Source of the DNA: Lamellibrachia satsuma
Taxonomy: Eukaryota; Annelida; Polychaeta; Sabellida; Siboglinidae
Direction of reading: 5' to 3'
NCBI GenBank assembly: GCA_033239005.1
Contig: BSQZ01000054.1
Span: 284,431 to 348,430, forward strand
DNA length: 64,000 nt
The notes below the pieces were generated by a model. It ran no database searches and had not been told where the DNA came from. It saw only the letters and a list, made by a program, of their open reading frames with translations. The position numbers and the translations under genes are program-made. Positions 6,080-31,603 of the stretch are shown here, in pieces (within the stretch, counting starts at the first letter, position 1; each line of letters opens with the position of its first letter).

Positions 6080-6154
6080 CTTCTATGACTACGGTTGCAT
6101 ACTTCCCAGAGTAAAATTACAATGGGTACGATTCCAACACTGTTAACCACATAC

Positions 6155-6338
6155 CTTTGTCAGAAAAATCAAAAAGTTCGTAGTGGTTGTTCCAGTATTT
6201 GAGGGTTACTCCAGCGACGGACAAACCGAAGCACATCCCGGACGCCCAGAACATAATGGCTGTCATTCCTGTACACAGACCGATTCGGTGTACTTTGATT
6301 TCCCTATCCTCGTTGACATACGTGAATTCTTTGACCAT
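6155..6338 (-). pseudogene. Orphan exon 1 of gene B (left-arm copy)
   Basis: The coding part of exon 1 runs from the ATG at 6338 to a donor AAAG|GTATGT with the exon ending at 6155. An acceptor GATTACAG lies just upstream. Its translation is identical to exon 1 of the intact gene B at 29304-29487, with one hydrophobic helix at residues 23-46. The duplicated block ends 75 bp further on, inside intron 1, and no exon 2 or 3 with the 147-nt signature follows on the minus strand before gene A. It is therefore a truncated duplicate. Transcription from the putative promoter at 7.2-7.5 kb could still include it, reading into the unrelated left flank. Confidence 0.8.
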
Positions 6339-6566
6339 CTTCTCGTTCTCTTGAAGTTGTTTCTGTAATCAGCATTGAAAGCATTGGATGATACTTTTAG
6401 TATTATTTCTGGGCGAATTGCGAATGAATCAATACATGCGCGCAGAAGCACACTGGCGAGATAATACCAATCGAAACAAGTACGTGCTTAATTATCTAAC
6501 CACCAACTTGTGTGTCAAATAGGTTGCCTAAACAACGCGGCACACACAGTGGACATACATGAATAC

Positions 6567-7093
6567 GCCCGCCCGCCCGCCCGCCCGCCCGCCCGCCCGC
6601 CCGCCCGCCCGCCCGCCCGCCCGCCCGCCCGCCCGCCCGCCCGCCCGCCCGCCCGCCCGCCCGCCCGCCCGCCCGCCCGCCCGCCCGCCCGCCCGCCCGC
6701 CCGCCCGCCCGCCCGCCCGCCCGCCCGCCCGCCCGCCCGCCCGCCCGCCCGCCCGCCCGCCCGCCCGCCCGCCCGCCCGCCCGCCCGCCCGCCCGCCCGC
6801 CCGCCGCCCGCCCGCCCGCCCGCCCGCCCGCCCGCCCGCCCGCCCGCCCGCCCGCCCGCCCGCCCGCCCGCCCGCCCGCCCGCCCGCCCGCCCGCCCGCC
6901 CGCCCGCCCGCCCGCCCGCCCGCCCGCCCGCCCGCCCGCCCGCCCGCCCGCCCGCCCGCCCGCCCGCCCGCCCGCCCGCCCGCCCGCCCGCCCGCCCGCC
7001 CGCCCGCCCGCCCGCCCGCCCGCCCGCCCGCCCGCCCGCCCGCCCGCCCGCCCGCCCGCCCGCCCGCCCGCCCGCCCGCCCGCCCGCCCGCCC
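6567..7093. repeat. (CCCG)n array, 527 bp
   Basis: About 131 nearly perfect CCCG units with one phase slip (a CCG) near 6803. The minus strand is GGGC repeated, a chain of G-quadruplex motifs with one-base loops and one CpG per unit. It lies between the coding exon 1 copy and the putative 5' exon. Open frames through it (Ala-Arg-Pro-Pro or Ala-Gly-Gly-Arg repeats) are artefacts. Confidence 0.97.
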
Positions 7094-7187
7094 TCACTTG
7101 AGGTTATGTATCAAGAAACCAAGGCTGTTATCTTTAACCTCACACAGCAAAGAAACACGAACACGTATGTCCAAATACTTCTCTTAC

Positions 7188-7560
7188 CTGATGTTTGCAC
7201 CTTGAACGCGAACTAGTCGTGGAGGGTATGTCGCTGTCGAAATGTGATCCCAGCAACTTGTCACGACGCAAAGACAGTTTTAGAATACGAGTCACGCATA
7301 TCTACACTATCACCCCTCGTGACCGACTGTGGCCCGTCATAGGACAAACAACTCTATGCTGGGTGCATGCTATCATGAAAACGAAAGAGGAAGAAACTAT
7401 TTCACATGTTCGTGATCTTATGTTTCCTGTTGGTGGTTTTCCTCGTAGTTCCCTTTATAAAGGGGTGTCGCCAACATTCCACGAATACTCAAGTTGCAGT
7501 ATTAATATTTTTCTTCCGTAAGCATATGCCGTTACAAGTCGGAAATTTATTGCGCATGCC
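7188..7560 (-). promoter_or_regulatory. Putative 5' noncoding exon and core promoter of the gene B left copy
   Basis: A donor CATCAG|GTAAGAG ends a possible exon at 7188 on the minus strand. Further upstream are a TATA-like TTTATAAAGG at 7454-7463 and an NRF-1-like TGCGCATGCC at 7551-7560. The same donor, an AT-rich box and the NRF-1-like site recur in the same order upstream of gene D (53899, about 54211-54225, 54312-54321). This whole segment is missing from the right arm. Conservation between copies supports it; no transcript evidence is available. Confidence 0.45.
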
Positions 7561-7599
7561 AGACTGAAAATGGTGAAGAAGGAAAATAAACAAATTCTA

Positions 7600-8476
7600 C
7601 ACTGATCCGTTACTAATGTTACCTCGTGTCCTCAAGTTCTACTATATTTCTTTTTTCATTCTTTCAACTTCTCCCCGTCACCCACTCTCTCTCTCTCTCG
7701 TTCTTTCTATCTATCTCACCCCTATCCATGTCTCCCTATATTATCAAGGCATTCAATTATGCAGCCTATCTAGATTTACACTGTTTGACGTGACAGCGTC
7801 CTGATATCATCGATCCATGACCTTTGGTGGATCGTGGACAATGCCCAAACTGTCCGTTTCATCTTGCATCCGGTCGCATTTTAAGACATGGCCGCACAAG
7901 TCCAGGGGTAGAAATCATTGAACCTTGGCGCGAGGTGCCCCGATCGAGATATAGAAGTGGAACATTCGAAGCAGCAACCGGATGTTGATACTTCCGACAA
8001 TGCACTTCAACTTTTATCGAGTGGAGTCGGATGACTATGACCCATTGATAAAATGGTTCAGACTGTCAAACCTGTACAGCGGCATTTCTTGCTGTCAACT
8101 GAAATATGGCAATACGTTTTGGTTGTCCACCATATATCTCCATCTAATCACACCCACGCATCGCATTCCCGCTTTGGGTTTTCATCAAGTGAGGGAGTGT
8201 GGCAGGGATCTCAACCTCCCGTCTTCCCCTTTTTTTTGGGGGGGCAACCTCCAATCTCCCACCCTCGACATACCGTGCAGCAAGTGACGCAATGTATGCC
8301 TGTGTACTGTGTAAATCTTATCATGCATGCAGACGTGAACGTCTACAACTGATACGTCGTGTCGTTAGGCTCTGTGGCGCGCACCTTATCGGTACAGAGC
8401 TTCGATCGATATCATTTCTAATTCGGCTACATTGTAACATTACGACGTCACCTTCCCGAAGGCGCTACACCAGCCC
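7600..8476. other. Dispersed repeat block shared with 28.1-28.8, 55.5-56.1 and 61.4-62.1 kb
   Basis: Contains CTCTCTCT near 7686, the phrase AGCAGCAACCGGATGTTGAT near 7971, and a run of CAACCTCC/TCCCACC. Diverged copies of these phrases occur near 55.7-56.0 kb and 61.6-62.0 kb, and as the palindromic partner at 28.1-28.8 kb. No gene is supported. Confidence 0.5.
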
Positions 8477-8880
8477 CTATTGTAATTGTCGATACTGGCG
8501 TTGTGATTGCGAATGTTGTCTCAGTTAACATAGTAAACTGGCGTTGTGATTGGGAATGTTGTCTCAGTTAACATAGTAAACTGGCGTTGTGATTGGGAAT
8601 GTTGTCTCGGTTAACATAGTAAACTGGCGTTGTGATTGGGAATGTTGTCTCAGTTAACATAGTAAACTGGCGTTGTGATTGGGAATGTTGTCTCAGTTAA
8701 CATAGTAAACTGGCGTTGTGATTGGGAATGTTGTCTCGGTTAACATAGTAAACTGGCGTTGTGATTGGGAATGTTGTCTCAGTTAACATAGTAAACTGGC
8801 GTTGTGATTGGGAATGTTGTCTCAGTTAACATAGTAAACTGGCGTTGTGATTGGGAATGTTGTCTCGGTTAACATAGTAA
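8477..8880. repeat. 43-bp minisatellite, about 9 copies
   Basis: Unit starts CTGGCGTTGTGATTGGGAAT and continues through TGTTGTCTCAGTTAACATAGTAAA. Copies are nearly identical, some with CGGTTAAC instead of CAGTTAAC. The right arm has about 7 copies (27080-27385). Homologous loci at 33.3 kb and 57.75 kb have one unit only. Confidence 0.93.
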
Positions 8881-8955
8881 ATCATAAAAGTTTTTCCGTT
8901 TAGAATATTTCTTATCATCCGCCTCAAAGAACATTTAAACGACATTTAAACGCAC

Positions 8956-8974
8956 TCGCGCACGCACGCTCACT

Positions 8975-9006
<32 letters not shown>

Positions 9007-9095
9007 CACAACCATATACGCAAAAATTACACATGCACAACACACACTTGCACGCACTCACGCACAAATCACACACACGCGCGCGCGCACGCATG
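8956..9095. repeat. GCAC/GCGC-rich microsatellite
   Basis: Imperfect ACGC repeats with a GCGCGCGC core near 9078. The mirror copy in the right arm is at about 26875-27003. Confidence 0.75.
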
Positions 9096-10160
<1,065 letters not shown>

Positions 10161-10510
10161 TATTATATAGATATTTCCAAGACATTACCTTTAATGAGTA
10201 AGGCGGCATTGCGTATCCATCCGGAACTTTTACACTGGCTTCTCAACAGGTACAATATCTATCATCTCTGCAGATACATTCACTGTTTCCATCTGTATAC
10301 AAACGGCGCCCTGGTAGTACATTGTGCAATGCTGATTAATGTACACACCACCCCCGAAATTTATCGCTTAAAATGTACAAATCGATTTTGTACTTTTACA
10401 TGCATAGTAAAAAGGTGCGGTATTTCTTTTGATATTGTATAATTCAAAATAATACAAACTTTTTCGTGTAATGCAAGCGCATTTTTTGACAGTGGATATA
10501 TTGCTCTTTA

Positions 10511-10591
10511 ACGTGGGATGGGATAGCGTAGTGCTAAGACCATTGAACTATCAATCATGCGAGGTTTGGATCGTCTTGCTGTCGCATGAAC
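10511..10591 (+). mobile_element. Possible tRNA-derived SINE head
   Basis: TAGCGTAGTGCTAAG resembles a Pol III A box, and GGTTTGGATCG about 36 bp downstream resembles a B box, as in the 5' part of tRNA-derived SINEs. No intact tRNA cloverleaf is apparent. The same sequence is at 25279-25357 in the right arm. Weak call. Confidence 0.35.
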
Positions 10592-10939
10592 AATTCCGTT
10601 ATATTTGCTGTATAAATTATTACTTGGCCATATAATTTACAAATACAAGGAAAATCTTTAAAAGTATACTTTTAGCAGAGTGGACTAAACGAACGTTATT
10701 AAAACAAAAAACACTTCATATGCGTGATTGCAAGCAACACAATTATTTACTTAACAACTAGCAACATAATTACATTTTAAGAATTACGCGGGTATCAAAA
10801 GCTGATGAATATTGGGGGGGTGCGAAGTTAGTGTTGCGAACATATTGGGGGGGCTACGTATGCTTAACATATACCCACAAAAACTATTTTGTGACCAGCT
10901 TCCCTGTCCCCACCCCTTTGTAGATGTCATTTGTTACTA

Positions 10940-11290
10940 GACATCGTAAGGCTAGTGTGATGGGGTCTCGGAGCAGTGTGTGGCCTTAAAAGAGTTGTAT
11001 ATGTACCAACTATGACATGCACATATGTTTCCAAAGGGAAGTTATACATTGATGGAACATCCCAAAGAATACCTCCTCACAGGACAACCTCCTGTTACCT
11101 GGATGCATCATTGCCAAGGTGGGCAGCTGTGAACAAATATCTTGGGTCAGCAAGACGAGATAGAGTATTAGACACCAAGCATATCGGGGGGGGGGGGGGT
11201 AGCAACGTCTACTTAACATATACCCACCATAAATTTTGCGGACCAACTTCCCGGTTCCCACGCCTATGGATAAAAGTGAAATCAAGGCAT
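10940..11290. repeat. Dispersed repeat X, module 1 (left arm)
   Basis: Contains GGAGCAGTGTGTGGCCTTAA and AAGGGAAGTTATACATTGAT. Copies are at 24580-24935 (right arm, inverted) and 35080-35300. An open frame runs through it but differences between copies are mostly amino-acid changing, so coding constraint is not supported. It matches no family I recognise. Confidence 0.6.
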
Positions 11291-11598
11291 TGTTTTGGGC
11301 CTTTGAACCTATAAGAGTGCCTAAAAACTAACCATTTGCAACTATAATCAAGAATATCCCGCAAGTGGTTTACTGGGAATCTGTTCTAAAAGTGCGAAAT
11401 TCTGGTCTAATGTCACTTTTCGTGGATGCTGATATATTCATCAGCGTTTGCAACTTTGACCAATCAGCGGCGAACAGCCCTTTAAACCCGACGCGGCTGT
11501 GACGTACGCTGTGCATATCACGTGTATTTTAGCGTGGTTGAGATGTGCAGTTACTTTTTTATTTACTTTTGTAGTGGATTTACACGCAACACAAACTC

Positions 11599-11930
11599 TT
11601 ACAATGCTGTACTTTGCAACATTCGGATGTAAACGTGATTCAGCGATTGAGAGAGTTGTTGTTTTTCGATTTCCTCTGGAAAAACAAAGATTAGTGAAGC
11701 AATGAATTCACAACTGCGGGCGGGCTGGTTGGGAACGCGATATGCCAGACTTTGATCGGCCCATTTTGAAGAGTCGTGTTTTGACGTTGATATATTTTCA
11801 TTAACTAATGGGTCAAGATCCTTCAAAATGTCGGCAACGGAGAACTCTAAAGCCTGAAGCAGTACCGACAATCTTCCAGCATGTACCTCAGTCGAAGGCT
11901 TCGACACAACGCAAACACTCAATCAAGAGA
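11599..11930 (+). pseudogene. Decayed THAP zinc-finger domain (left arm)
   Basis: Read across shifting frames, the plus strand gives ATFGCKRDS, then VVVFRFPLEKQRL, then RYARL-stop-SAHFEESCFD, then LKPEAVPTIF. These are the ordered landmarks of a THAP domain: first cysteine region, FRFP, CSEHF and the LKPxAVPTIF end. The codon where CSEHF should begin with the zinc-binding cysteine is TGA, and at least two frame changes are needed, so it is dead. THAP domains bind DNA and occur in P-element-type transposases and in host regulators; the source here is unknown. Other copies are at 23950-24255 and 27850-28020. Confidence 0.7.
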
Positions 11931-11939
11931 ACTGTCAAA

Positions 11940-13353
11940 TCTGATAGCGAAGCGGTAAGTAAACAATGAATGAATGGACTATCTTCCCAAATAAGTTGAT
12001 TTTAGACGCAAACAGCATGTCTAAACTTATTGGCAGGTATGTGACTAAAATCGTCTGCGTCTACGATCAGGCGTTTAAAGTCGGAGTTGTGGGAAACCTA
12101 TACAGCCCTCTTGACATAGGATTCTGAACAAATATGGCGCTGTCCATGCAAAATAAGCTTTTCGGTGTTCAACAAGATGTATTTATTTAACCAATTGCGT
12201 GATATTCTTGATTACAGTTGCAAATGGTTAGTTTTCAAGTATAGGTTCAAATGTCCCAAAAATACATTTGGTTTCACTTTAAACACTAGTACATATTTAG
12301 CCATTAAATGTGTGTTTCAACTGTAATGCTAAAATGTTTGTTTCGTTGTCTTTGTCATTAGCTTTGTTTGTGTGGCTGTTTCGAATCCTTGTTGTTGTTG
12401 ACACCATTGTTGATCAAGGCTCCGATGGCAACCTCCTTTTAGAGGCCATTGACTAATGAATATCGTACTGTTAGTGAGATGAGGGATTTTGGAACAGTGT
12501 GTGACTATTCAGTTGCATATGTAGCAACTATGACATGCACCGATGTCTCCAAAGAGAAGTTATACATCCAAATATATACCTCTTCACAGGACAAGCTCCT
12601 GTTACTGGTTCATGTAACCACTTGAAGGAATCAAACACCACGTAAATCAACTGTAGCATACGCCGAGATAGCATCTGACGTGACCACTCGGCGGAATTCA
12701 CTGGACTGTTGCAAGTAAAGTAGTTCACCGAATTCGTTCGCGCGTTAATTTTCCGCGACGTAGTCGCATGTCTTTACACGCCGCAATGCAACTTTTGAAT
12801 CATTTGGAACCTTTTTCAATGTGCAACATTACATAGTTGCATATACCTGAGTCTTCACCATGTCATTATATTAAGCTCATTGACGAAATGGACCACAAAT
12901 CTACAAACATATTATATACTTCTCTCTTTTTTTCAACATATCTTATTTATAGTTAGTCCGTTAACCATATATTTATTTCAGCATATCCACTGAAGTTATA
13001 ATTTCCTTCCTTCTGCTGCGAACTCAGCTAAATCCTAGCATACATATATACTTACGTACGTACGTAAGATCAACATTTCACAAGAGTTAACGATAGTTAA
13101 CACTGCAATCAGTGTGCCTTGCAATCAGTTTATAGTTTGTATAGTTGCATTCATTTATCGTCCTCTGTGAGAATGCATACTTTCTGATATCCAATCTACA
13201 CTGTTTCTCAAGTCTCAAGTCTAAAGTGGTTATATTCCAAACAGCCCAAACTTGGGCTAACGCATGAGTTTGTGATGGACTGTGCGTTGCGGGTGGTACA
13301 TACAACTAAAAGACTAGTATCTTTAATGTTGCTGAAAGGGTTTTTATCTGATA
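11940..13353. repeat. Dispersed repeats incl. repeat X module 2 (12480-12735)
   Basis: 12195-12300 holds a copy of a repeat containing ATTCTTGATTACAGTTGCAA, seen at least six times in the window. 12480-12735 is a second repeat X module, partly similar to module 1, with a third copy at 34865-35000. A short TACG tandem lies near 13053-13066. No gene is supported. Confidence 0.55.
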
Positions 13354-16300
13354 GTTTTATTTATTTTATGTTAAGGATGTTAGATGAACATTTTTAATAC
13401 GTTGGTTATGTGTATGAATACTGTCGCTGTCTTGCCACATGCGCACATAGACAATCTCCATACCCACACCATGGATAAGTTTACGCTGAGCACTGTGTTT
13501 TAAAGGCAGTTTAGGTGAGCAGGTGTGGTGAAAGGGAGTTCCATGATTGCTTCTTGAAATTTTTGTGGGGTTTTTATGTGGATAATTTTTGGTGGAATCA
13601 TATTCCATATGCGAATGGCTCTGGGATAAAATGAAAAGACCATTGCATTTATACGACACCTGGGGGCTACGTATTGTCCACGGGTTCGAGAGCGGGTTAG
13701 TATGCCTGGGAGGGGGTGATCTCAATAATGTTATTTAGAATTGTGTAGAAGGTTGTGGCTTGTTTAATAATACGTCTTCGTTCAAGGGTTAGCCATCCAA
13801 GGGCAGTAATTAGATCTGCTGGTTTGTGTTCCGTCTGTAATCATTTTTAACAAATCTGGCAGCAGAGTGTTGTACTCTTTCAAGGCTTTTAACTTGTGAA
13901 ATGGTGTGATGATTCCATATTGGTGACGAATACTCGAGTTTTGGCCGGATTAGCATGTTGTAGGCTGTTTGTTTAACTTCGGGTTTACATGGGTCAAGAG
14001 TTCGTTTAATCATGCCTAAAACTTTCGGAAATTTTGAAGTTATGTCAGTTACGTGATTTGTCCAGGTTAATTTGGAATCCAATTTTACTCCGAGATATGA
14101 GTGGCTGGATACAGTGGATAATAGCTGGCCAAAAAGCGAGTAATTGTGTGTGCTGGGTTTAGTTTTGTTTGTTATTGGAAGGTGTACACATTTAGACACA
14201 TTAAATTCCATTTGCCATTTGTCTGACCATGTTCGGAGTTGGTTTAGGTCAGTTTGGAGAATTTCGTGGTCGGTTTTGGAATAAATTTTACGATATATAA
14301 TACTGTCATCTGCAAACAGGCGTATAGAAGATTTAATGTTCCCATCTATGTCATTTATGTAGAGTAAGAAGAGGACATGTCCTAGAACTGAACCCTGTGG
14401 GACACCAGATTTGACATCTGTGATGTCCGACAAGGCTCCGTTAACTGAGACTCTCTGTTTGCGGTTGGATATAAAAGATTTTATCCAGTTTTGAGTGTTT
14501 CCAGTGATTCCGTAGGAGGTCAATTTTGATAGAAGACGTAGATGAGGCACTTTGTCGAAGGCTTTGGCAAAGTCAAGCCGGATTGCGTCAATTTGGGTCT
14601 TGTTGTCCATAGCAGTCATCCAGTCATGGACTGTCTCAATGAGTTGAGATTCACAAGATAGTCCCGACTGGAATCCGTGTTGGAAGTGGAGAATGATGTT
14701 ATGCTTGTGCAAGTGTTTCCACATATTGCTTAGGATGATATGTTCCATTACTTTACAGAGGATGCAGGTTAGTGATATGGATCTGTAGTTAGCAGGGTAA
14801 GATTTGTGGCTCTTTTTGTGTATAGGAGTTACTAATGCTTGTAGCCAGTCGTTAGGAAGTTTACCTGTGTTGTATGATTGTTGGAAAATTTGGGTGATAA
14901 TGGGGGCTATCTGCTTTGCAGTTTCTTTAAGGACTCTGGCTGGGAGTACATCTGGGCCTGTAGCTTTGTTCTGGTTTAGATTTTCCAGCTGCTTAATTAC
15001 GCCAACTATGCCAATTTAGAGAAGGGGATGTTGGGGTAAGTAGACGGGGCTATTTGGGGGATGGGTGCTTTTCTTGGGTAAATACAGAGCTAAATTGGTT
15101 GTTTAGGGCATTTGCTTTATCACGATTATTTATTATTGGCTGGTCGTTTACTGGAAGTGTGGGAATGCCGATGTTTTCTCGTTTATTTGCCTTAATAAAT
15201 GATCATAATCGTTTTGGATTAGTTTTCAGGCTGTCTCCAATGTGGGTGTTAATATAGTCTTTGTAAGATTTTGCTAATGCTTTAGTAGCTTGCTTTCGGA
15301 GTTCCTTAAATTTTTCCCGTTCACTGTTTAGTCCAGTTTGCTTTGCCTTTTTGTGGCTTTTGTTACGTCTTCTCTGCATTCTAATTAGTTCACGTGTTAT
15401 CCAGGGGAGGTGGGTTTTAGCTTTAGTGTATCGTCTAGGTATGCTATTGTTAATCAAGGTAGTCAGTCGTTCGCGAAAGAAGGTCCAGTTTATGTCTATA
15501 TCCTGTAAGTTGTGGTCCATGTCGAAGTACTCATGATTTAGTTTGTCTATGTCGTCTTTGAGTTTGTCCCAGATTTGTAACTTTAAACTTTGTGGGGGGT
15601 TTTCTTGTTGCGAACTGGGTTTAAGTTGACATTGAAGGTCACGGATTCGTGATCGCTCATTTTATACAGCCCAAAGTCGTTAGTTATTTCTAGTAGTTTT
15701 TTACGCTTGCTAGCAGTGCTGTTGTTAGTGGTCTGATGATTTGTCCAGTTGATATCATGGAGGTTAAAATCTCCAGCTATGACTACATTAGGGGGAGTTT
15801 TTTTGTGATCTATATAGTTTAGTTAGGGAGTCATGGAGAGCTCCAAGGGTGGTCATTTGGGGGTTGATAATAAGATGCAAAGTATATGCATTTGTTTCGT
15901 GCAAAGTGAATTTTTGTCCAACCTGTTTCACAATTTGAGTTTAAATTTTGGAGGGGTTCAGCTACAATGTTGTCACGGAAGGCTATAAGGACTCCACCGC
16001 CATGGACATTCCTGTCCTTTCTGATGGCCTCATAGTTGGGTGGTAGGAAAGAGTATGTAGCATAGTTTGCATCTAATTTAGTTTCAACTAGAAATATGAT
16101 GTCTGGGTTATTAGATTGAATAGTTGCCTTTAGTTGGGTTGCTTTTTCTATGCTCTTAACGCTGTTGGCGTTTATAAAAATTCCTTTCTTTAAGTGTGTT
16201 TCCTTGGGTTTTCTTGTAACGTTCAGGGGTTGAAGTGTTTTGGGGGTTTGGGGCGAAATTAAGCTTGCATTTTGTGATGTATGGAGTGTTGGGGTACTAA

Positions 16301-18435: not shown

Positions 18436-18439
<4 letters not shown>

Positions 18440-21136: not shown

Positions 21137-22075
21137 ATGGAACATATCATCCTAAGCAATATGTGGAAACACTTGCACAAGCATAACATCATTCTCCACT
21201 TCCAACACGGATTCCAGTCGGGACTATCTTGTGAATCTCAACTCATTGAGACAGTCCATGACTGGATGACTGCTATGGACAACAAGACCCAAATTGACGC
21301 AATCCGGCTTGACTTTGCCAAAGCCTTCGACAAAGTGCCTCATCTACGTCTTCTATCAAAATTGACCTCCTACGGAATCACTGGAAACACTCAAAACTGG
21401 ATAAAATCTTTTATATCCAACCGCAAACAGAGAGTCTCAGTTAACGGAGCCTTGTCGGACATCACAGATGTCACATCTGGTGTCCCACAGGGTTCAGTTC
21501 TAGGACATGTCCTCTTCTTACTCTACATAAATGACATAGATGGGAACATTAAATCTTCTATACGCCTGTTTGCAGATGACAGTATTATATATCGTAAAAT
21601 TTATTCCAAAACCGACCACGAAATTCTCCAAACTGACCTAAACCAACTCCGAACATGGTCAGACAAATGGCAAATGGAATTTAATGTGTCTAAATGTGTA
21701 CACCTTCCAATAACAAACAAAACTAAACCCAGCACACACAATTACTCGCTTTTTGGCCAGCTATTATCCACTGTATCCAGCCACTCATATCTCGGAGTAA
21801 AATTGGATTCCAAATTAACCTGGACAAATCACGTAACTGACATAACTTCAAAATTTCCGAAAGTTGTAGGCATGATTAAACGAACTCTTGACCCATGTAA
21901 ACCCGAAGTTAAACAAACAGCCTACAACATGCTAATCCGGCCAAAACTCGAGTATTCGTCACCAATATGGAATCATCACACCATTTCACAAGTTAAAAGC
22001 CTTGAAAGAGTACAACACTCTGCTGCCAGATTTGTTAAAAATGATTACAGACGGAACACAAACCAGCAGATCTAA
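21137..22075 (+). pseudogene. Retrotransposon reverse transcriptase fragment
   Basis: 312 residues with LDFAKAFDKVPH, SGVPQGSVLG, YINDI and the catalytic FADD, followed by the thumb-region phrase YLGVKLDSKLTW. These are reverse-transcriptase motifs of CR1/Jockey-type LINEs. N-terminal motifs lie upstream of 21137 in the same area, and C-terminal ones after a frameshift at 22075. The mirror copy is at 13810-14748. Confidence 0.92.
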
Positions 22076-22530
22076 TTACTGCCCTTGGATGGCTAACCCT
22101 TGAACGAAGACGTATTACTAAACAAGCCACAACCTTCTACAAAATTCTAAATAACATTATTGAGATCACCCCCTCCCAGGCATACTAACCCGCTCTCGAA
22201 CCCGTGGACAATACGTAGCCCCCAGGTGTCGTATAAATGCAATGGTCTTTTCATTTTATCCCAGAGCCATTCGCATATGGAATATGATTCCACCAAAAAT
22301 TATCAACATAAAAAACCGAAAAACATTTCAAGAAGCAATCATGGAACTCCCTTTCACCACACCTCCTCACCTAAACTGCCTTTAAAACACAGTGCTCAGC
22401 GTAAACTTATCCATGGTGTGGGTATGGAGATTGTCTATGTGCGCATGTGGCAAGACAGCGACAGTATTCATACACATAACCAACGTATTAAAAATGTTCA
22501 TCTAACATCCTTAACATAAAATAAATAAAA

Positions 22531-23069
22531 CTATCAGATAAAAACCCTTTCAGCAACATTAAAGATACTAGTCTTTTAGTTGTATGTACCACCCGCAGCG
22601 CACAGTCCATCACAAACTCATGCGTTAGCCCAAGTTTGGGCTGTTTGGAATATAACCACTTGAGACTTGAGACTTGAGAAACAGTGTAGACTGGATATCA
22701 GAAAGTATGCATTCTCACAGAGGACGATAAATGAATGCAACTATACAAACTATAAACTGATTGCAAGGCACACTGATTGCAGTGTTAACTATCGTTATCG
22801 TGAAATGTTGATCTTGTACGTACGTACGTACGTACGTACGTACGTAAGTATATATGTATGCTAGGATTTAGCTGAGTTCGCAGCAGAAGGAAGGAAATTA
22901 TAACTTCAGTGGATATGCTGAAATAAATATATGGAGAACGGACTAACTATAAATAAGATATGTTGAAAAAAGGAGAGAAGTATATAATATGTTTGTAGAT
23001 TTGTGGTCCATTTCGGCGGCGTGTAAAGACATGCGACTACGTCGCGGAAAATTATCGCGCGAACGAATT
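22531..23069. other. Right-arm noncoding sequence with a GTAC tandem
   Basis: About 22816-22847 is a self-complementary (GTAC)n run of about 8 units, longer than the partner near 13053. No gene seen. Confidence 0.6.
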
Positions 23070-23350
23070 CGGTGAACTACTTTACTTGCAACAGCCCAGT
23101 GAATTCCGCCGAGTGGTCACGTCAGATGCTATCTCGGCGTATGCTACAGTTGATTTAACGTACGTGGTGTTTGATTCCTTCAAGTGGTTACATGAACCAG
23201 TAACAGGAGCTTGTCCTGTGAAGAGGTATATATTGGGATGTATAACTTCTCTTTGGAGACATCGGTGCATGTCATAGTTGCTACATATGCAACTGTATAA
23301 TCACACACTGTTCCAAAATCCCTCATCTCACTAACAGTACGATATCCATT
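23070..23350. repeat. Dispersed repeat X, module 2 (right arm)
   Basis: Mirror of 12480-12735, containing GTGGTCACGTCAGATGCTAT. A diverged third copy is at 34865-35000. Confidence 0.65.
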
Positions 23351-23469
23351 AGTCAATGGCCTCTAAAAGGAGGTTGCCATCGGAGCCTTGATCAACAATG
23401 GTGTCAACAACAACAACGATACGAAACAGCCACACAAACAAAGCTAATGACAAAGACAACGAAACAAAC

Positions 23470-23570
23470 AATGCATGTTTCAACTGTAATGTTTCAACTG
23501 TAATGTTTCAACTGTAATGTTTCAACTGTAATGCTAATCATTTTAGCATTACAGTTGAAACACACATTTC
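23470..23570. repeat. Local tandem plus inverted insertion in the right arm
   Basis: TGTTTCAACTGTAA occurs four times in a row and is then followed by its inverse (TTTAGCATTACAGTTGAAAC), forming a hairpin. The left arm has only one copy (about 12310-12335). Confidence 0.85.
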
Positions 23571-23949
23571 ATGGCTAAATATGGCTAAATAGTGTTTAAA
23601 GTGAAACCAAAGGTATTTTTTGGGACATTTGAACCTATACTTGAAAACTAACCATTTGCAACTGTAATCAAGAATATCACGCAATTGGTTAAATAAATAC
23701 ACCTTGTTGAACACCGAAAAGCTCATGGACAGCGCCATATTTGTTCAGAATCCTACGTCAAGAGGGCTGTATAGGTTTCCCACAACTCCGACTTTAAACG
23801 CCTGATCGTAGACGCAGACGATTTTAGTCACATACCTGCCAATAAGTTTAGACATGCTGTTTGCGTCTAAAATCAACTTATTTGGGAAGATAGTCCATTC
23901 ATTCATTGTTTACTTACCGCCTCGCTTTCCGATTTGACAGTTCTCTTGA

Positions 23950-24255
23950 TTGAGTGTTTGCGTTGTGTCGAAGCCTTCGACTGAGGTACAGACTGGAAGA
24001 TTGTCGGTACTGTTTAAGACTTTAGAGTTCTCCGTTGCCGACATTTTGAAGGATCTTGACCCATTAGTTAATGAAAATATATCAACGTCAAAACACGACT
24101 CTTCAAAATGGGCCGATCAAAGTCTGGCATATCGCGTTCCCAACCAGCCCGCCCGCAGTTGTGAATTCATTGCTTCACTAATGTTTGGAGGAAATCGAAA
24201 ACAACAACTCTCTCAATCGCTGAATCACGTTTACATCCGAATGTTGCAAGAGTTT
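23950..24255 (-). pseudogene. Decayed THAP domain (right arm)
   Basis: Mirror of 11599-11930. Here the sequence that gave LKPEAVPTIF on the left is altered (AAGTCTTAAACAG instead of AAGCCTGAAGCAG), so the copy is further decayed. A small tandem duplication (AGAGTTTGTGTTGCGTGTAA twice, near 24250-24290) is private to this arm. Confidence 0.65.
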
Positions 24256-24579
24256 GTGTTGCGTGTAAGAGTTTGTGTTGCGTGTAAATCCACAACAAAA
24301 GTAAATAAAAAAGTAACTGCACATCTCAACCACGCTAAAAATACACGTGATATGCACAGCGTACGTCACAGCCGCGTCGGGTTTAAAGGGCTGTTCGCCG
24401 CTGATTGGTCAAAGTTGCAAACGCTGATGAATATATCAGCCTCCACGAAAAGTGACATTAGACCAGAATTTCGCACTTTTAGAACAGATTCCCAGTAAAC
24501 CACTTGCGTGGTATTCTTGATTACAGTTGCAAATGGTTAGTTTTTAGGCACTCTTATAGGTGCAAAGGCCCAAAACAAT

Positions 24580-24935
24580 GCCTTGATTTCACTTTTATCC
24601 ATAGGCGTGGGAACCGGGAAGTTGGTCCGCAACATTTATGGTGGGTATATGTTAAGTAGACGTTGCTACCCCCTCCCCCCGATATGCTTGGTGTCTAATA
24701 CTCTATCTCGTCTTGCTGACCCAAGATATTTGTTCACAGCTGCCCACCCTGGCAATGATGCATCCAGGTAACAGGAGGTTGTCCTGTGAGGAGGTATTCT
24801 TTGGGATATTCCATCACTGTATAACTTCCCTTTGGTAACATATGTGCATGTCATAGTTGGTACATATACAACTCTTTTAAGGCCACAAACTGCTCCGAGA
24901 CCCCATCACACTAGCCTTACGATGTCTAGTAACAA
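24580..24935. repeat. Dispersed repeat X, module 1 (right arm)
   Basis: Mirror of 10940-11290. A third diverged copy lies at 35080-35300. Confidence 0.6.
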
Positions 24936-25278
24936 ATGACATCTACAAAGGGGTGGGGACAGGGAAGCTGGTCACAAAATAGTTTTTGTGGGTATATGTT
25001 AAGCATACGTAGCCCCCCCAATATGCTCGCAGACACTAACTTCGCCACTTCCACAATTTTAATCTACTTTCGATGCCCGCGTAATTCTTAAAATGTAATT
25101 ATGTTGCTAGTTGTTAAGTAAATAATTGTGTTGCTTGCAATCACGCATATGAAGTGTTTTTTGTTTTAATAACCTTCGTTTAGTCCACTCTGCTAAAAGT
25201 ATACTTTTAAAGATTTTCCTTGTATTTGTAAATTATATGGCCAAGTAATAATTTATACAGCAAATATAACGGAATTGT

Positions 25279-25357
25279 TCATGCGACAGCAAGACGATCC
25301 AAACCTCGCATGATTGATAGTTCAATGGTCTTAGCACTACGCTATCCCATCCCACGT
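25279..25357 (-). mobile_element. Possible SINE head (right arm)
   Basis: Inverted partner of 10511-10591, with the same A-box- and B-box-like motifs. Weak call. Confidence 0.35.
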
Positions 25358-25708
25358 TAAAGAGCAATATATCCACTGTCAAAAAATGCGCTTGCATTAC
25401 ACGAAAAAGTTTGTATTATTTTGAATTATACAATATCAAAAGAAATACCGCACCTTTTTACTATGCATGTAAAAGTACAAAATCGATTTGTACATTTTAA
25501 GCGATAAATTTCGGGGGTGGTGTGTACATTAATCAGCATTGCACAATGTACTACCAGGGCGCCGTTTGTATACGGATGGAAACAGTGAATGTATCTGCAG
25601 AGATGATAGATATTGTACCTGTTGAGAAGCCAGTGTAAAAGTTCCGGTTGGATACGCAATGCCGCCTTACTCATTAAAGGTAATGTCTTGGAAATATCTA
25701 TATAATAT

Positions 25709-25710
<2 letters not shown>

Positions 25711-25744
<34 letters not shown>

Positions 25745-25864
25745 CGCACACACGCACACACGCACACACGCACACACGCACACACGCACACACGCACACA
25801 CGCACACACGCACACACGCACACACGCACACACGCACACACGCACACACGCACACACGCACACA

Positions 25865-25948
<84 letters not shown>
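25711..25948. repeat. CA/CACACGCA/CGCA compound microsatellite
   Basis: CA repeats, then about 17 copies of the 8-bp higher-order unit CACACGCA, then CGCA, then CA. The left arm has only CA and CGCA units, so the 8-bp order arose after the arms separated. Confidence 0.95.
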
Positions 25949-25949
<1 letters not shown>

Positions 25950-26964
25950 ATATATTATTTTGACCGCCCAAATGTGCTTTGTTGGCCCACTTTTAATGTA
26001 ATTTGAATTTGACCGATATCTTGGTTATGGATATTGTTTGATCATTGTTCACCGTTTCGTAAGGGCAGCAAGACAGGTGGCGACCAGAGCAGACGGGTAG
26101 AATGGGTTATATAAACATATAACTAAAATACAAACCATTAACACAACTATATTTTTGATACTGTACACACAGTTTGGAGTAATAACTAGCTAAAATAAGA
26201 TCGTAGATTACTTGTTATCAAATATTATTCAGGTCCTGGTTTGTATATATTGTTTGGTGTTGTTTGGTGAAACTCTCTACCTCTCTTTCCTTACCTCTCC
26301 CTTCTTGCAATCATGGTTTATACCTTCGCCCTGTTCTCTCTTCTTTCATGTCCTTGATTACATTATCATTTCCATTTTACCAAAATGTCGCTTTAAATGT
26401 AACACTTAACCAAATACATGTGCCACTGTTACTCGGGAAGGAACGCTATTGGTGGATTGCGTCTTTGTGCGTATATGTGTGTAATTTAAGTTATGCGATG
26501 ACAAACAGCCACCATATACCGTGTTCCAGTGACGTCACCAGAGAAGTCCCGGGTCACTGGTCCAGTTGGACATTACACAACCACTCAAACAGACGCCCTA
26601 TGTCCATCACGTATAAGCCGTTGAGGGTCAATGTGGCCATCTGCGATACTGCGGTCTTTCCTTTGTGTTGACCATATTTCCGCTCAAAGTATACCGGTAT
26701 TATCTTGACCTCTTTGCCAGACAGCGTCGGGACGTCTTTGTGCCATTGCAGTTATTAACAGCGACAACGATCATTGCTGCAGGAGTGAACCTCGATGGGA
26801 CAAACAATCTTGATCGACTGGTTATGCTTGTTTGTTAAAATAGCTAAGGCGATATGCGTGTTGTGAGTATGCGTGCATGCGTGCGCGCGCGCGTGTGTGT
26901 GATTTGTGCGTGAGTGCGTGCAAGTGTGTGTTGTGCATGTGTAATTTTTGCGTATATGGTTGTG

Positions 26965-27005
<41 letters not shown>

Positions 27006-27079
27006 GAGTGCGTTTAAATGTCGTTTAAATGTTCTTTGAGGCGGATGATAAGAAATATTCTAAACGGAAAAACTTTTAT
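25949..27079. other. Right-arm mirror of 8881-10022, noncoding
   Basis: Same motifs as the left arm in reverse complement, including a GCGCGCGC-containing microsatellite at 26875-27003. No gene is supported. Confidence 0.6.
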
Positions 27080-27385
27080 GATTTACTATGTTAACTGAGA
27101 CAACATTCCCAATCACAACGCCAGTTTACTATGTTAACTGAGACAACATTCCCAATCACAACGCCAGTTTACTATGTTAACTGAGACAACATTCCCAATC
27201 ACAACGCCAGTTTACTATGTTAACTGAGACAACATTCCCAATCACAACGCCAGTTTACTATGTTAACTGAGACAACATTCCCAATCACAACGCCAGTTTA
27301 CTATGTTAACTGAGACAACATTCCCAATCACAACGCCAGTTTACTATGTTAACTGAGACAACATTCGCAATCACAACGCCAGTAT
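27080..27385. repeat. 43-bp minisatellite, about 7 copies (right arm)
   Basis: Mirror of the array at 8477-8880 with two fewer units and almost no variation between units (all GTTAACTGAGACAAC). Confidence 0.93.
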
Positions 27386-27615
27386 CGACAATTACAATAG
27401 GGGCTGGTGTAGCGCCTTCGGGAAGGTGACGTCGTAATGGTACAATGTAGCCGAATTAGAGACGATATCGATCGAAGCTCTGTACCGATAAGGTGCGCGC
27501 CACAGAGCCTAACGACACGACGTATCAGTTGTAGACGATCACGTCTGCATGCATGATAAGATTTACACAGTACACAGGCATACATTGCGTCACTTGCTGC
27601 ACGGTATGTCGAGGG

Positions 27616-28127
27616 CTAGCCTTTAGACCACAGCTGGGTTGACAAGGCACCATTGTCCAATTGCACTGAACAGCTATTTGTTTGTGCATGTGCGTGTGCG
27701 TGTGCGTGTGCGTGTGCGTGTGTGTGTATTTTTTTGTGCGGCGTGCGGTGTACGTATGGTGTTTATGTTTATATACAGCTAAATATGTAGTGTTATTAAC
27801 ATTAATGTCAATAACAACAGCCAAAGTCGCCTAAGAGGGGATGTGGCAGGTGAAGCAATGAATTCACAACTGCGGGCAGGCTGGTTGGGAACGCGATATG
27901 CCAGACTTTGATCGGCCCATTTTGAAGAGTCGTGTTTTGACGTTGATATATTTTCATTAACTAATGGGTCAAGATCCTTCAAAATGTCGGCAACGGAGAA
28001 CTCTAAAGCCTTAAACAGTGGGAGATGGAAGGTTGGTCCTAGAAATTGGTGGGAAGTGTGAGTTTAGCCTCAAAGATAGGTGGGAGGTAGGCATGGCTGA
28101 AGGTGGGACGAGGACTATCAAAATTGG
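27616..28127. repeat. 512-bp segment present only in the right arm
   Basis: The left arm passes directly from one flank (ATGTCGAGGG, reverse complement) to the other (TGGGAGATTGG). About 28020-28127 resembles 61880-62030, so that part is probably ancestral and lost from the left arm. 27850-28020 is an extra THAP-derived copy. 27690-27725 is a GTGTGC repeat. Confidence 0.85.
27850..28020 (+). pseudogene. Third copy of the THAP relic
   Basis: 171 bp matching 11694-11864 almost exactly, from GTGAAGCAATGAATTC to CTCTAAAGCCTTAAACAG. Only the middle of the domain is present. It is absent from the similar block at 61.9-62.05 kb, which suggests insertion or copying from the neighbouring relic. Confidence 0.7.
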
Positions 28128-28806
28128 TGGGAGATTGGAGGTTGCCCCCCCAAACAAGGGGAAGACGGGAGGTTGAGATCCCTGCCACACTCCCTCACTT
28201 GATGAAAACCCAAAGCGGGGAATGCGATGCGTGGGTGTGATTAGATGGAGATATATGGTGGACAACCAAAACGTATTGCCATATTTCAGTTGACAGCAAG
28301 AAATGCCGCTGTACAGGTTTGACAGTCTGAACCATTTTATCAATGGGTCATAGTCATCCGACTCCACTCGATAAAAGTTGAAGTGCATTGTCGGAAGTAT
28401 CAACATCCGGTTGCTGCTTCGAATGTTCCACTTCTGTATCTCGATCGGGGCACCTCGCGCCAAGGTTCAATGATTTCTACCCCTGGACTTGTGCGGCCAT
28501 GTCTTAAAATGCGACCGGATGCAAGATGAAACGGACAGTTTGGGCATTGTCCACGATCCACCAAAGGTCATGGATCGATGATATCAGGACGCTGTCACGT
28601 CAAACAGTGTAAATCTAGATAGGCTGCATAATTGAATGCCTTGATAATATAGGGAGACATGGATAGGGGTGAGATAGATAGAAAGAACGAGAGAGAGAGG
28701 GGGTGACGGGGGAGAAGTTGAAAGAATGAAAAAAAAAAGAAATATAGTAGAACTTGAGGACACGAGGTAACATTAGTAACGGATCAGTGTAGAATTTGTT
28801 TATTTT

Positions 28807-29076
28807 CGGGCGGGCGGGCGGGCGGGCGGGCGGGCGGGCGGGCGGGCGGGCGGGCGGGCGGGCGGGCGGGCGGGCGGGCGGGCGGGCGGGCGGGCGGGCG
28901 GGCGGGCGGGCGGGCGGGCGGGCGGGCGGGCGGGCGGGCGGGCGGGCGGGCGGGCGGGCGGGCGGGCGGGCGGGCGGGCGGGCGGGCGGGCGGGCGGGCG
29001 GGCGGGCGGGCGGGCGGGCGGGCGGGCGGGCGGGCGGGCGGGCGGGCGGGCGGGCGGGCGGGCGGGCGGGCGGGCG
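28807..29076. repeat. (GGGC)n array, 270 bp (right arm)
   Basis: About 67 perfect CGGG units on the plus strand, directly upstream of gene B. Compared with the left arm, the array is half as long and the adjoining 490 bp holding the putative 5' exon and promoter are gone. On the plus strand, the coding strand of gene B, it is a continuous run of G-quadruplex motifs. Confidence 0.97.
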
Positions 29077-29303
29077 TATTCATGTATGTCCACTGTGTGT
29101 GCCGCGTTGTTTAGGCAACCTAGTTGACACACGAGTTGGTGGTTAGATAATTAAGCACGTACTTGTTTCGATTGGTATTATCTCGCCAGTGTGCTTCTGC
29201 GCGCATGTATTGATTCATTCGCAATTCGCCCAGAAATAATACTAAAAGTATCATCCAATGCTTTCAATGCTGATTACAGAAACAACTTCAAGAGAACGAG
29301 AAG

Positions 29304-31603
29304 ATGGTCAAAGAATTCACGTATGTCAACGAGGATAGGGAAATCAAAGTACACCGAATCGGTCTGTGTACAGGAATGACAGCCATTATGTTCTGGGCGT
29401 CCGGGATGTGCTTCGGTTTGTCCGTCGCTGGAGTAACCCTCAAATACTGGAACAACCACTACGAACTTTTTGATTTTTCTGACAAAGGTATGTGGTTAAC
29501 AGTGTTGGAATCGTACCCATTGTAATTTTACTCTGGGAAGTATGCAACCGTAGTCATAGAAGGATAACTATATATTTCCAGTTGATCATTTAAATACCGC
29601 TGTCGCTTCGCATCCTCTTGTTATATTCAGATAATATGATTGGCGATAAATTTACAAGAATGCTTAGTGTATTTGATAATACATACGAGGTGGCATTTAA
29701 GAAAAAACTATTGTTTTCTATGCGGAGTTGTGACACTATGATAATACAATTATGGTGTATCGTGTATGTGCAGATTATGGACCATGCAGTTCGTTACGTT
29801 CTTGGGATCGTACAGAGCTGTGTGCGACGTGACATTCGTTGAAGGTCCAAGAAAATGTTGAAAAGAATATTTTCGTCTGAGAATTGTTTTCATTGAATAA
29901 TTTATTGTGCGTGTCTACTGCCTTTTCTCTCGTCCCTCGCTTCCCCCATCCTCTCTTCAAACAAATATATAGATAGATACGAATGATAAAGAGATAAGAA
30001 GAGATTAGAGGAGAGAAACCCAAGCTATGTAGACTTAGGTCTTATGTCCACCTCGATCGTGAGGATTAGAGGAGAGAAACCCAAGCTATGTAGACTTAGC
30101 TCTTATGTCCACCTCGATCGTGAGGATTAGAGGAGAGAAACCCAAGCTATGTAGACTTAGATCTTATGTCCACCTCGATCGTGAAATAACACGGACACAA
30201 AATGTAAATTACTGCGTAAACAACTATTTATTTAAACTCGTCACGGTCCAGCGATCGGTGACATTTGTTCTCCGAACACTGACGCATATTTTGAAGTGGT
30301 TTAATCTTGAAACGTGAACAGATGTAAAAACACCAGAAGGCAGTCTTCATTATAATGGGAAAGGCATTAAAAAATAAATATTTTATTGGGATATAATTCG
30401 ACATGTGTAAAGAACGAGTTATGGATGTGGCGTGTTCCTCTGCAAAGCCATTCCGACTAACGCAGCATTGTTTGTTTTAGGGGCTACATTGTCGGGCAAG
30501 GTAGCATCCGTGATCGGAGTCGTCACGACAGGGTTGATGTTTATTTATGCCGTGATCTACAACCTCTCCAACGCCCTTCCAAAAGGAGGCTCTCTGAAAA
30601 AGTTCAAAATCTTGGCGGTCGCAAGTTGTAAGATTTCCGAAACATTTATCTTAAGTTGCTGTTGTTGTGTGCTCTTCCTCGTTCCTTCCTCTATAATATG
30701 TGAGGGTAATCCATTTACTGTTTACCATTTCATTGTTCCCTATCGGCACACTTCTCTCTCCAGTTGCCACTCTCCCCCGCCTTTCTCACATCCCTCATTA
30801 CGCAGTCCTCTCAACCCAGTTGCGGTCTTTCTTGTTTCATCGCATCTGCTCCCTTTGGTAGACGACTTCCTCCATCCACACCACGTCATCTGGCTTCTTC
30901 CTATTCTTCCTGTTAAGCTGAATAACACCCCAATCTCTTCCCTTAGGTCATCCATCCTCCTTCTTCCTGTGCTCTCCGGACCAAGTGGTTCTGGTAAACT
31001 CGACACTTTGCTATGTATGTAAGACATCAGTATCAGTAACATAGTTTTGACTGACACATGTCGAAATCATATTTTCACACCAAAGTAGAATCTAATCTTG
31101 CCGAAAGAGCTGTGTAAATGTTTTGCAATGTGAACAATGTTTGTCTAGTCATGTGAACAATGTAAAGGTACGTTGTTATATAGCGTGACATCCAGTCCAC
31201 ATAGGTGTGCATGTATGGATATGCATACACGTGTGTCTGTGCGTCAGCCCCGCCTGCTTGTGTGTGGAATTATGACTGGTCGACAGTAATCCAAACAGCA
31301 GTCATAACATTGTATGTTGGCATTATGCTCACCAACGCGTAACGCTGTCACGGTTCATTTGTTCTTTCAGGTTTAGTGTTGTTCGCTGGCATAGTGGTGT
31401 TCGTGATTGGAAACAATTTCAATTTCAAATATGGGCCTCCGTTATATGCGTTCGGCTGCGTTGTTGTCGCTGTTGTTATGGCTATTGGCTGCGAAATGGC
31501 AGTCTTGAAGGAAACGGAGCGAGCGAGAGAAGCAGGAATATATGATGAATTTTCGGTACTCCCTATCGGGTTGGAGCAAACCAGAGTGCACCGCGTTGTG
31601 TAA
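29304..31603 (+). CDS. Gene B: divergent claudin-like four-helix protein, 187 aa
   Basis: Exons 29304-29487, 30481-30627 and 31371-31603 (184+147+233 nt = 188 codons with stop), both introns phase 1 and GT-AG. An acceptor GATTACAG lies 26 nt upstream of the ATG, so an upstream noncoding exon is expected, but the sequence that would hold it is deleted here. The N-terminus has the family phrase VHRIGLCTGM; four helices lie near residues 23-46, 68-92, 104-123 and 130-150. The first loop has W49 but neither GLW nor the paired cysteines, so it is a divergent member. The last residues (EQTRVHRVV) match the start of a second module in gene D, followed at once by a stop, so this is a cut-down relative of the two-module gene. 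Function beyond membrane insertion is unknown. Confidence 0.8.
30003..30185. repeat. 61-bp tandem repeat, 3 copies, in intron 1 of gene B
   Basis: Each unit begins GATTAGAGGAGAGAAACCCA and ends ACCTCGATCGTGAG; copies differ at one position near the middle (TTAG followed by G, C or A). Confidence 0.9.
30735..31020 (-). mobile_element. 3' fragment of a LINE in intron 2 of gene B
   Basis: The minus strand encodes RRRMDDLREEIGVLFSLTGR followed by altered W.GHV.RM-type and LRNEG sequence, the C-terminal region of a non-LTR retrotransposon. The same fragment occupies the corresponding introns of both modules of gene D (49865-50225 and 52205-52560), antisense to the gene each time. Confidence 0.7.

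What the first reader, a model, noticed from the sequence alone, without database searches (positions are those of the whole stretch)
6080..29562. A 23.5-kb near-perfect palindrome with 11.4-11.6 kb arms and a 546-bp spacer
The two arms pair base for base over long stretches, and several reading frames are identical on both sides. Inverted repeats this long and similar are rare and unstable; where known (primate sex-chromosome palindromes, amplified resistance loci) they are kept alike by gene conversion. The arms do differ by substitutions, a 490-bp and a 512-bp indel, private insertions and differing microsatellite lengths. That argues against a simple folded-read artefact, but an assembly error joining two haplotypes remains possible.
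Basis: seen in the sequence. Interest (0 to 1): 0.92.

Follow-up and report, generated by a model that had tools for sequence, protein, structure and literature searches.

The report
Nested DNA palindrome with patchwork arm
An animal gene cluster holds a real-looking 23.5-kb mirror-image stretch of DNA inside a much larger mirror image, and one of its arms is a patchwork that matches two other copies in turn, a trace of how such structures arise or are kept alike.

Summary
In detail: 6080-17659 and 18198-29562 pair as an inverted repeat with a 538-546 bp spacer, 1.07% substitutions outside tandem repeats and 29 indels. The window lies on contig C54 of a 735-Mb genome, in a cluster of four-span, perhaps claudin-like genes. 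A simple haplotype fold is unlikely: left and right flanks are unrelated and two stretches further out show no mirror partner. New here: (1) the palindrome sits inside a larger, patchy inverted repeat (spacer 2.4 kb, arms about 100 kb or more); (2) that repeat holds a third copy, P, with one arm only; (3) arm A is a mosaic: at 179 sites where B and P differ, A follows B at 77 of the first 78 from the spacer outward, then P at 90 of 101; (4) P shows that the A|spacer join is derived and cuts a dispersed hairpin-bearing element. Best reading: fold-back at a break, copying B, then a template switch to P; nearly as likely, later gene conversion of an arm that mirrors P. No raw reads were available. 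A striking new member of a known kind.

The parts
6080..17659 (+). left arm (A) of the palindrome, 11,580 bp
   Evidence: self-BLAST, alignment; mosaic of B-like (inner) and P-like (outer) sequence
17660..18197 (.). spacer, 538 bp (546 bp if counted from the innermost mismatch)
   Evidence: one further full-length copy among the scored places, C54:206702-207238, 96%
18198..29562 (-). right arm (B), 11,365 bp, continuous with the flank on its right
   Evidence: an older homology (29699-29075 with 53011-53604, part of a longer series) runs through its outer edge
17800..17932 (.). 133-bp hairpin in the spacer (DNA folding z = -11.9)
17660..17992 (.). part of a dispersed hairpin-bearing element; the A|spacer junction cuts it, whereas P and six other copies continue to the left
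13810..14748 (-). reverse-transcriptase frame (312 aa) of a LINE in arm A, frames broken
   Evidence: Pfam RVT_1 E 1e-25; nearly the same open-frame layout in both arms
15831..16670 (-). PHD / endonuclease frame of the same LINE, arm A
   Evidence: Pfam PHD and Exo_endo_phos
19214..20041 (+). PHD / endonuclease frame of the LINE, arm B
21137..22075 (+). reverse-transcriptase frame of the LINE, arm B; 2 aa differ from arm A
13768..17659 (+). inner tract of A that matches B (7 of 3,841 sites differ) while P is about 2.2% off; the switch lies between 13767 and 14039
11898..11986 (+). short B-like tract (9 of 10 informative sites) inside the P-like outer part of A
6155..6338 (-). first exon (model) of a four-span gene in arm A; its donor lies 75 bp inside the outer edge of the arm; no second exon recognised by eye among the frames printed for 2400-6400
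29304..29487 (+). first exon (model) in arm B, same frame sequence
30481..30627 (+). exon 2 (model) of the B gene, outside the palindrome
31371..31603 (+). exon 3 (model) of the B gene, with stop (spliced model 187 aa)
306..2404 (-). neighbouring four-span gene 1 (model: exons 2161-2404, 1510-1656, 306-457; 180 aa), same orientation as the A exon
7094..7581 (+). 488 bp present in A and P, with a relative in the older copy at 53795-54441, absent from B
27616..28127 (+). 512 bp present in B, absent from A and P; 170 bp of it repeats 24009-24178 at 98.8%, and its right end has a relative at about 61926-62003
47059..59038 (+). older inverted relative of 25949-34127 (blocks mostly 69-87%, largely collinear, with off-diagonal copies too)

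Best explanation
A real, recent inverted duplication inside a larger inverted repeat, in a cluster of four-span genes. Before it, the locus read: hairpin element with spacer - B - right flank, as the copy P still does. A break inside the hairpin-bearing element let the B side fold back on itself. Repair synthesis first copied B itself (inner 3.6-3.9 kb), then switched to the second copy P of the same sequence, about 80-95 kb away on the contig (or its sister or homologue), for the outer 7.7-7.9 kb, and the new end was joined to the left flank in intron 1 of the gene. Shown: the structure, the derived A|spacer join, the B-then-P mosaic of A, the one-armed state at P. Inferred: the break, the fold-back, and that one event made A.
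For: Structure and uneven divergence. Third copy P with spacer and right flank but only one arm. Three-way alignment of 9,678 sites: inner 3,500 sites A-B 5 differences, P 77 private; outer 6,178 sites A-P 12 differences, B 90 private. At 179 B/P-informative sites A follows B at 77 of the first 78, then P at 90 of 101, and always one of the two; 12 runs, reached by 0 of 10,000 shuffles. The order B-then-P outward from the spacer is what fold-back first and template switch second predicts. Of 19 gaps of 3 bp or more in the outer part, A goes with P at 14. The two parts look about equally young: 5/3,500 vs 12/6,178, or about 3/6,100 if the short tract is left out, Fisher p 0.15 for the latter. 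P and six other copies of the element continue left past 17660, so A|spacer is the new join, with 1 bp shared. Hairpin in the spacer, z -11.9. In human fold-back inverted duplications 21 of 21 sequenced junctions have a single-copy spacer, 766-70,466 bp, and 13 have 2-8 bp inverted microhomology (PMC3907307, passages).
Against: No raw reads. Only 1 bp shared at the A|spacer join; at 6079|6080 only a TTATC word 6 bp off the join, not tested for chance. The short B-like tract at 11.9 kb needs one more switch or a later conversion. Of 19 outer gaps, 3 go with B and 2 are A's own; of 3 inner gaps one, in a CT repeat, goes with P. A's 5 private sites lie 4 in the inner and 1 in the outer part, more uneven than one birth would lead one to expect, though few. 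The left flank has an 81% relative at C54:229397-228632 that ends at 6080, on the far side of P's right flank: A thus stands where the mirror image of P would stand, less about 10 kb, which suits an arm inherited with the larger repeat and converted later.
Confidence: 0.45

Rival explanations
1. Older arm homogenised by gene conversion. A came with the larger inverted repeat as the mirror partner of P (about 10 kb between it and the left flank since lost), the spacer-B-flank block came to lie inverted beside it, and B then overwrote the inner 3.6 kb of A across the spacer; A and P stayed, or were made, alike in the outer part.
For: Same mosaic; the place of A mirrors that of P relative to the left flank and its relative at C54:228632-229397; the short B-like tract at 11986-11898 looks like an ordinary conversion tract; human Y palindrome P6 has conversion tracts of mean 2,068 bp and maximum above 9 kb (PMC3723533, abstract); the arms of the larger repeat range from 0 substitutions in 793 bp to 81% identity.
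Against: A-P differ by about 0.2% or less in the outer part while neighbouring parts of the larger repeat differ by 1-19%, so a second long conversion, running right up to the outer edge of the arm, is needed as well; the two must be of about the same age.
Confidence: 0.38
2. Assembly error: two haplotypes or two repeat copies joined so that a palindrome appears.
For: Divergence of about 1-4% between the copies is in the range of heterozygosity in marine invertebrates (recalled); the contig carries a second, larger inverted repeat; a paper warns of artificial palindromes from scaffolding (PMC7953838, passages) and another of scaffolding errors behind breaks in collinearity (PMC5916493, passages).
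Against: Left and right flanks are unrelated. C54:75001-78000 and 128501-132500 have no collinear partner in 284431-468430. The longest identical run between the arms is 1,365 bp, readable by long reads, and the genome is 735 Mb in 279 contigs with a 528-bp tetranucleotide array assembled through; the sequencing method itself is not known. A differs from B at 7 of 3,841 inner sites and from P at 12 of 6,178 outer sites plus repeat lengths. B and P differ by about 2%, so a switch of path would need a very short overlap.
Confidence: 0.12
3. A transposable element with very long terminal inverted repeats.
For: Inverted arms around a short centre; the spacer is partly a dispersed element.
Against: No target-site duplication (longest word shared by the 30-bp flanks is 4 bp, not at the edges); the right edge lies inside an older homology that runs on; no transposase family at E 0.01 or better recognised in the arm frames scanned, besides the broken LINE (three weak hits were not traced to a frame); a 2.5-kb arm probe is covered in full by A, B (two pieces) and P only, 40 of 1,642 candidates scored.
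Confidence: 0.02

Closest known systems
Fold-back inverted duplications of human chromosomes (Hermetz et al. 2014, PMC3907307; passages read)
   Same: Inverted copies around a short single-copy spacer; the end of the new copy is joined to other DNA.
   Different: Those are Mb-scale, beside terminal deletions; here the copy is 11.5 kb, inside a contig, and is a patchwork of two templates.
Gene-converting palindromes of the human Y, e.g. P6 (Hallast et al. 2013, PMC3723533; abstract read)
   Same: Inverted arms with multi-kilobase exchange between them.
   Different: Y arms exceed 99.9% identity; here 98.9% with one converted-looking block; location on a sex chromosome not tested.
Inverted-repeat gene pairs of Caenorhabditis (Zhao et al. 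2007, PMC1803023; abstract and first part of Results read)
   Same: Invertebrate inverted gene duplicates whose arms stay alike.
   Different: In the two examples read the intergenic arms are 160 and 124 bp; in the part read no third copy shows the donor.
Palindromes in the polymorphic VCBP gene cluster of amphioxus (PMC2632668; passages read)
   Same: Large inverted repeats in a variable gene family of a marine invertebrate.
   Different: Haplotype-specific there; no mosaic arm described in the passages read.
Palindromes reported in Adineta vaga and Folsomia candida (PMC5916493, PMC7953838; passages read)
   Same: Collinear inverted blocks on one scaffold of an invertebrate.
   Different: Defined by gene order, with misassembly named as a possible source; here base-level evidence with a third copy.

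Membership tests
Fold-back inverted duplication | single-copy spacer between inverted copies | tested here: met
   spacer 538 bp between the arms; within the window it matches only itself and its own hairpin
Fold-back inverted duplication | short inverted homology at the spacer edge | tested here: inconclusive
   1 bp shared at the A|spacer join; older homology would now be hidden in the arms
Fold-back inverted duplication | arm next to the fold copied from the other arm | tested here: met
   inner A matches B, not P; later conversion would look the same
Gene-converting palindrome | tracts shared between arms against a third copy | tested here: met
   77 of 78 inner sites, and a 9-of-10 tract at 11.9 kb; timing relative to birth of the arm not resolved
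Gene-converting palindrome | arms kept alike over time, seen across individuals or species | not testable with these tools
   the tool states that this genome has no relatives here
Terminal-inverted-repeat transposon | target-site duplication at the outer ends | tested here: not met
Terminal-inverted-repeat transposon | several full-length copies | tested here: not met
   one 2.5-kb arm probe, 40 of 1,642 candidates scored: covered in full by A, B and P only
Haplotype fold of an assembly | flanks continue to mirror each other | tested here: not met
Claudin / PMP22-like four-span proteins (genes in the flanks) | Pfam match above the curated cut-off | tested here: not met
   best TMEM37 21.9 bits (cut-off 31.7) and PMP22_Claudin 19.3 (26.7) on the frame at 2150-2407; of four spliced models only gene D has a claudin hit, 15.1 bits
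Claudin / PMP22-like four-span proteins (genes in the flanks) | shared exon plan | tested here: met
   four models (one partial) with exon 2 of exactly 147 bp and phase-1 introns; this shows one family, not that it is claudin

The most novel reading that the evidence does not exclude
Arm A is the fossil of one replicative repair event: a break in a hairpin-bearing element, fold-back copying of B, a template switch to a second copy about 80-95 kb away, and capture by the left flank. The event also delivered an upstream region and a phase-compatible first exon in front of gene 1, so that a fused four-span protein (A exon 1 with gene 1 exons 2-3, open frame of 160 aa) may be made.
Probability: 0.1. 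Interest if true: 0.65.

Novelty: new member of a known kind. Interest (0 to 1): 0.48.

Why it matters
Most palindromes show only that the arms are alike. Here a third, one-armed copy on the same contig tells which join is new and which copy each part of arm A goes with. That makes a usually hidden question, one-step template switching versus later gene conversion, testable with a second individual. It also places nested palindromes in a tandem gene family of an animal, where they could move promoters and first exons between genes.

Tried and rejected
Transposon with long terminal repeats: no target-site duplication, edge inside an older homology, no further full copies. Haplotype fold: flanks unrelated and two outer stretches not mirrored. 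LINE coding constraint as the cause of the low inner divergence: rejected, because the frames are broken alike in both arms and P carries 77 private differences in the same stretch. A probe from L042 turned out to be a common repeat and was uninformative. Rfam found nothing at gathering scores; ARAGORN no tRNA; no PDB relative of the exon at 43147-43392, while the RT frame matches LINE-1 and R2 chains. Protein search with the frame 51368-51796 gave 1 hit of 9 candidates, unnamed; the RT frame gave 4,337 hits of which 120 were listed, nearly all unnamed, the best named one from the annelid Ridgeia piscesae at 73% over 84%, so the host is only guessed to be an annelid or near relative. Pfam scan of 130 frames (of 237 found; left-arm frames, LINE frames and some others set aside by hand) gave six weak families, one member each. 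The probe at C54:383.7-386.2 kb never got an answer, so the left outer end of the larger repeat is known only to lie between about 157 and 132.5 kb, if it is a single end.
Full report
OBSERVATION. The inverted repeat is there as described. Self-BLAST pairs 6080-17659 with 29562-18198 in blocks of 93.5-99.6% identity. Outside tandem repeats 105 of 9,803 aligned sites differ, 1.07%, and the alignment has 29 gaps. The 538/546-bp spacer, the 488-bp and 512-bp indels and the differing repeat lengths are confirmed. Divergence is uneven: 29 of 3,108 sites in the outer part, 69 of 2,854 in the middle, 7 of 3,841 next to the spacer; a change point at 13768 has a log-likelihood gain of 29.8, reached by 0 of 1,000 permutations, and a second one at 10793 by 0 of 500. 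Substitutions are clustered: 38 of 105 lie within 10 bp of the one before. The longest identical run is 1,365 bp.

CONTENT. The inner part of each arm is a LINE with PHD, endonuclease and reverse-transcriptase frames, broken in nearly the same layout in both arms. In the genome search with the RT frame the two arms match at 100% (rounded) and the other 38 of 40 scored copies, of 882 candidates, at 94-95%. Around the LINE the window holds genes of one four-span family. A first exon recurs at 2150-2407, 6120-6368, 29274-29522, 43147-43392, 51368-51796 and 53178-53465 (six frames aligned; coordinates are of open frames). Four spliced models, one partial, have phase-1 introns and an exon 2 of exactly 147 bp. 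Pfam hits to TMEM37 and PMP22_Claudin stay below the curated cut-offs, so 'claudin-like' is a tentative label; the W-GLW-C-C motif is recalled. The outer edge of the palindrome lies in intron 1 of the model: arm B goes on to exons 2 and 3; for arm A only exon 1 was found, and no second exon was recognised by eye in the frames of the left flank.

POLARITY FROM OLDER COPIES. The stretch 25949-34127 is largely collinear, inverted, with 47059-59038, through the right edge of the palindrome; there are off-diagonal copies too. The B side is therefore taken as the old arrangement and the left edge at 6080 as a break. With older copies as outgroup (2,580 columns in five segments) 14 differences are new in A, 10 in B, and 3 are undecided. 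No target-site duplication was found.

THE WHOLE GENOME. After seven unanswered tries genome search replied: the window is C54:284431-348430 of a 735-Mb genome in 279 contigs. Among 40 scored of 1,069 candidates the spacer has one other full-length copy, C54:206702-207238, 96%. A 2.5-kb arm probe is covered in full by A, by B in two pieces (96-97%) and by C54:212093-214590, 99%. The right flank recurs at 218169-219845, 99%. Fetching 194431-224430 shows one continuous copy P: spacer' 206697-207238, arm 207239-218646, right flank 218647-224294 at 96-99%, with no second arm to the left of its spacer.

THE LARGER INVERTED REPEAT. Window 1-2600 has inverted relatives at 232082-234343 (89-95%), and weaker relatives in two symmetric pairs, 255361-256610/261696-262945 and 256714-257179/261127-261592, each with coordinate sum 518306. 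C54:355681-358180 pairs with 157209-159709 at 98%. The centre has a spacer of 2,386 bp (257946-260331), and the innermost 793 bp show no substitution and one 29-bp gap. Elsewhere substitution differences between window and second half are 1.1-2.4% in the stretches compared, 4.1% in the spacer, and the left flank has an 81% relative. P lies in direct, not mirrored, orientation relative to B, so the segment is also inverted between the two halves. Two stretches further left, 128501-132500 (scattered short hits of 67-90% only) and 75001-78000 (no hit), have no collinear partner in 284431-468430; 3001-5500 has one 296-bp hit of 92.6% there, but its mirror place was not held. The contig therefore does not look folded at its start. 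The outer ends were not mapped.

THE MOSAIC ARM. In a three-way alignment of 9,678 sites outside tandem repeats A-B differ at 96, A-P at 93, B-P at 179; private sites are A 5, B 91, P 88. In the inner 3,500 sites A-B differ at 5 while P has 77 private states; in the outer 6,178 sites A-P differ at 12 while B has 90 private states. Of the 179 sites where B and P differ, A follows B at 77 of the first 78 (17611 to 14039), then P at 90 of 101 (13767 to 6509); the 11 exceptions are a tract at 11986-11898 (B-like at 9 of 10 sites) and two single sites. A's own 5 private sites, where B and P agree, lie 4 in the inner and 1 in the outer part. Of 19 outer gaps of 3 bp or more A goes with P at 14, with B at 3 and alone at 2; of 3 inner gaps with B at 2 and with P at 1. 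A is thus pieced together from B-like and P-like sequence with a sharp switch between 14039 and 13767.

THE NEW JOIN. In P and in the six other genomic copies looked at (L011-L016) the dispersed element that makes up 17660-17992 continues to the left; in the window it is cut at 17660 and arm A begins, with 1 bp shared. It contains a 133-bp hairpin with DNA folding z -11.9. So P keeps the state before the duplication at this place, and A|spacer is the derived break.

MECHANISM. Fold-back repair from a break in the element would first copy the arm it folds onto (B) and could then jump to another copy (P). The observed order B-then-P fits. The ages of the two parts agree roughly (5/3,500 vs 12/6,178; about 3/6,100 after leaving out the short tract, Fisher p 0.15; leaving it out was decided after seeing it). 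Later conversion is the main rival and nearly as likely: the left flank has an 81% relative at C54:229397-228632 that ends at window 6080, on the far side of P's right flank, so A stands where the mirror image of P would stand, less about 10 kb. Human fold-back duplications have single-copy spacers of 766-70,466 bp (PMC3907307, passages), longer than this one, and Y-palindrome conversion tracts average 2,068 bp with a maximum above 9 kb (PMC3723533, abstract).

FUNCTION. Arm A carries the first exon and upstream DNA of the B gene in the orientation of gene 1, about 3.8 kb upstream of it. Splicing A exon 1 onto gene 1 exons 2-3 would leave an open frame of 160 aa. No transcript data were available.

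NOVELTY. Inverted duplications, nested palindromes (recalled for ape Y chromosomes) and conversion between arms are known. The worth lies in the third copy, which tells the derived join and the source of each part.

Noticed in passing
C54:157-259 kb vs 259-358 kb (L018, L029, L031, L045-L048; window 1-6079 and 29563-64000): A larger, patchy inverted repeat with a 2.4-kb spacer surrounds the palindrome; no substitution in the innermost 793 bp, elsewhere from about 1% to 19% difference where looked at.
   Followed up: partly
51368-51796: Exon 3 of one four-span unit and exon 1 of the next are fused in one open frame, suggesting an eight-span gene; the following donor reads AT instead of GT.
   Followed up: partly
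11273-12283: About 1 kb in the arm is a dispersed element with about 100-bp inverted ends; genomic copies listed at 81-88%; probably a non-autonomous DNA transposon.
   Followed up: no
11694-11863 and 27850-28019: A 170-bp piece of that element lies a second time, at 98%, within the 512-bp stretch that arm B has and A and P lack.
   Followed up: no
55694-56074: A 381-bp stretch that matches its own reverse complement, around a 200-bp pure AT array.
   Followed up: no
6566-7093, 28807-29076: Near-perfect CGCC/CGGG tetranucleotide arrays of 528 and 270 bp, about 230 bp upstream of the first exon model in the two arms.
   Followed up: no
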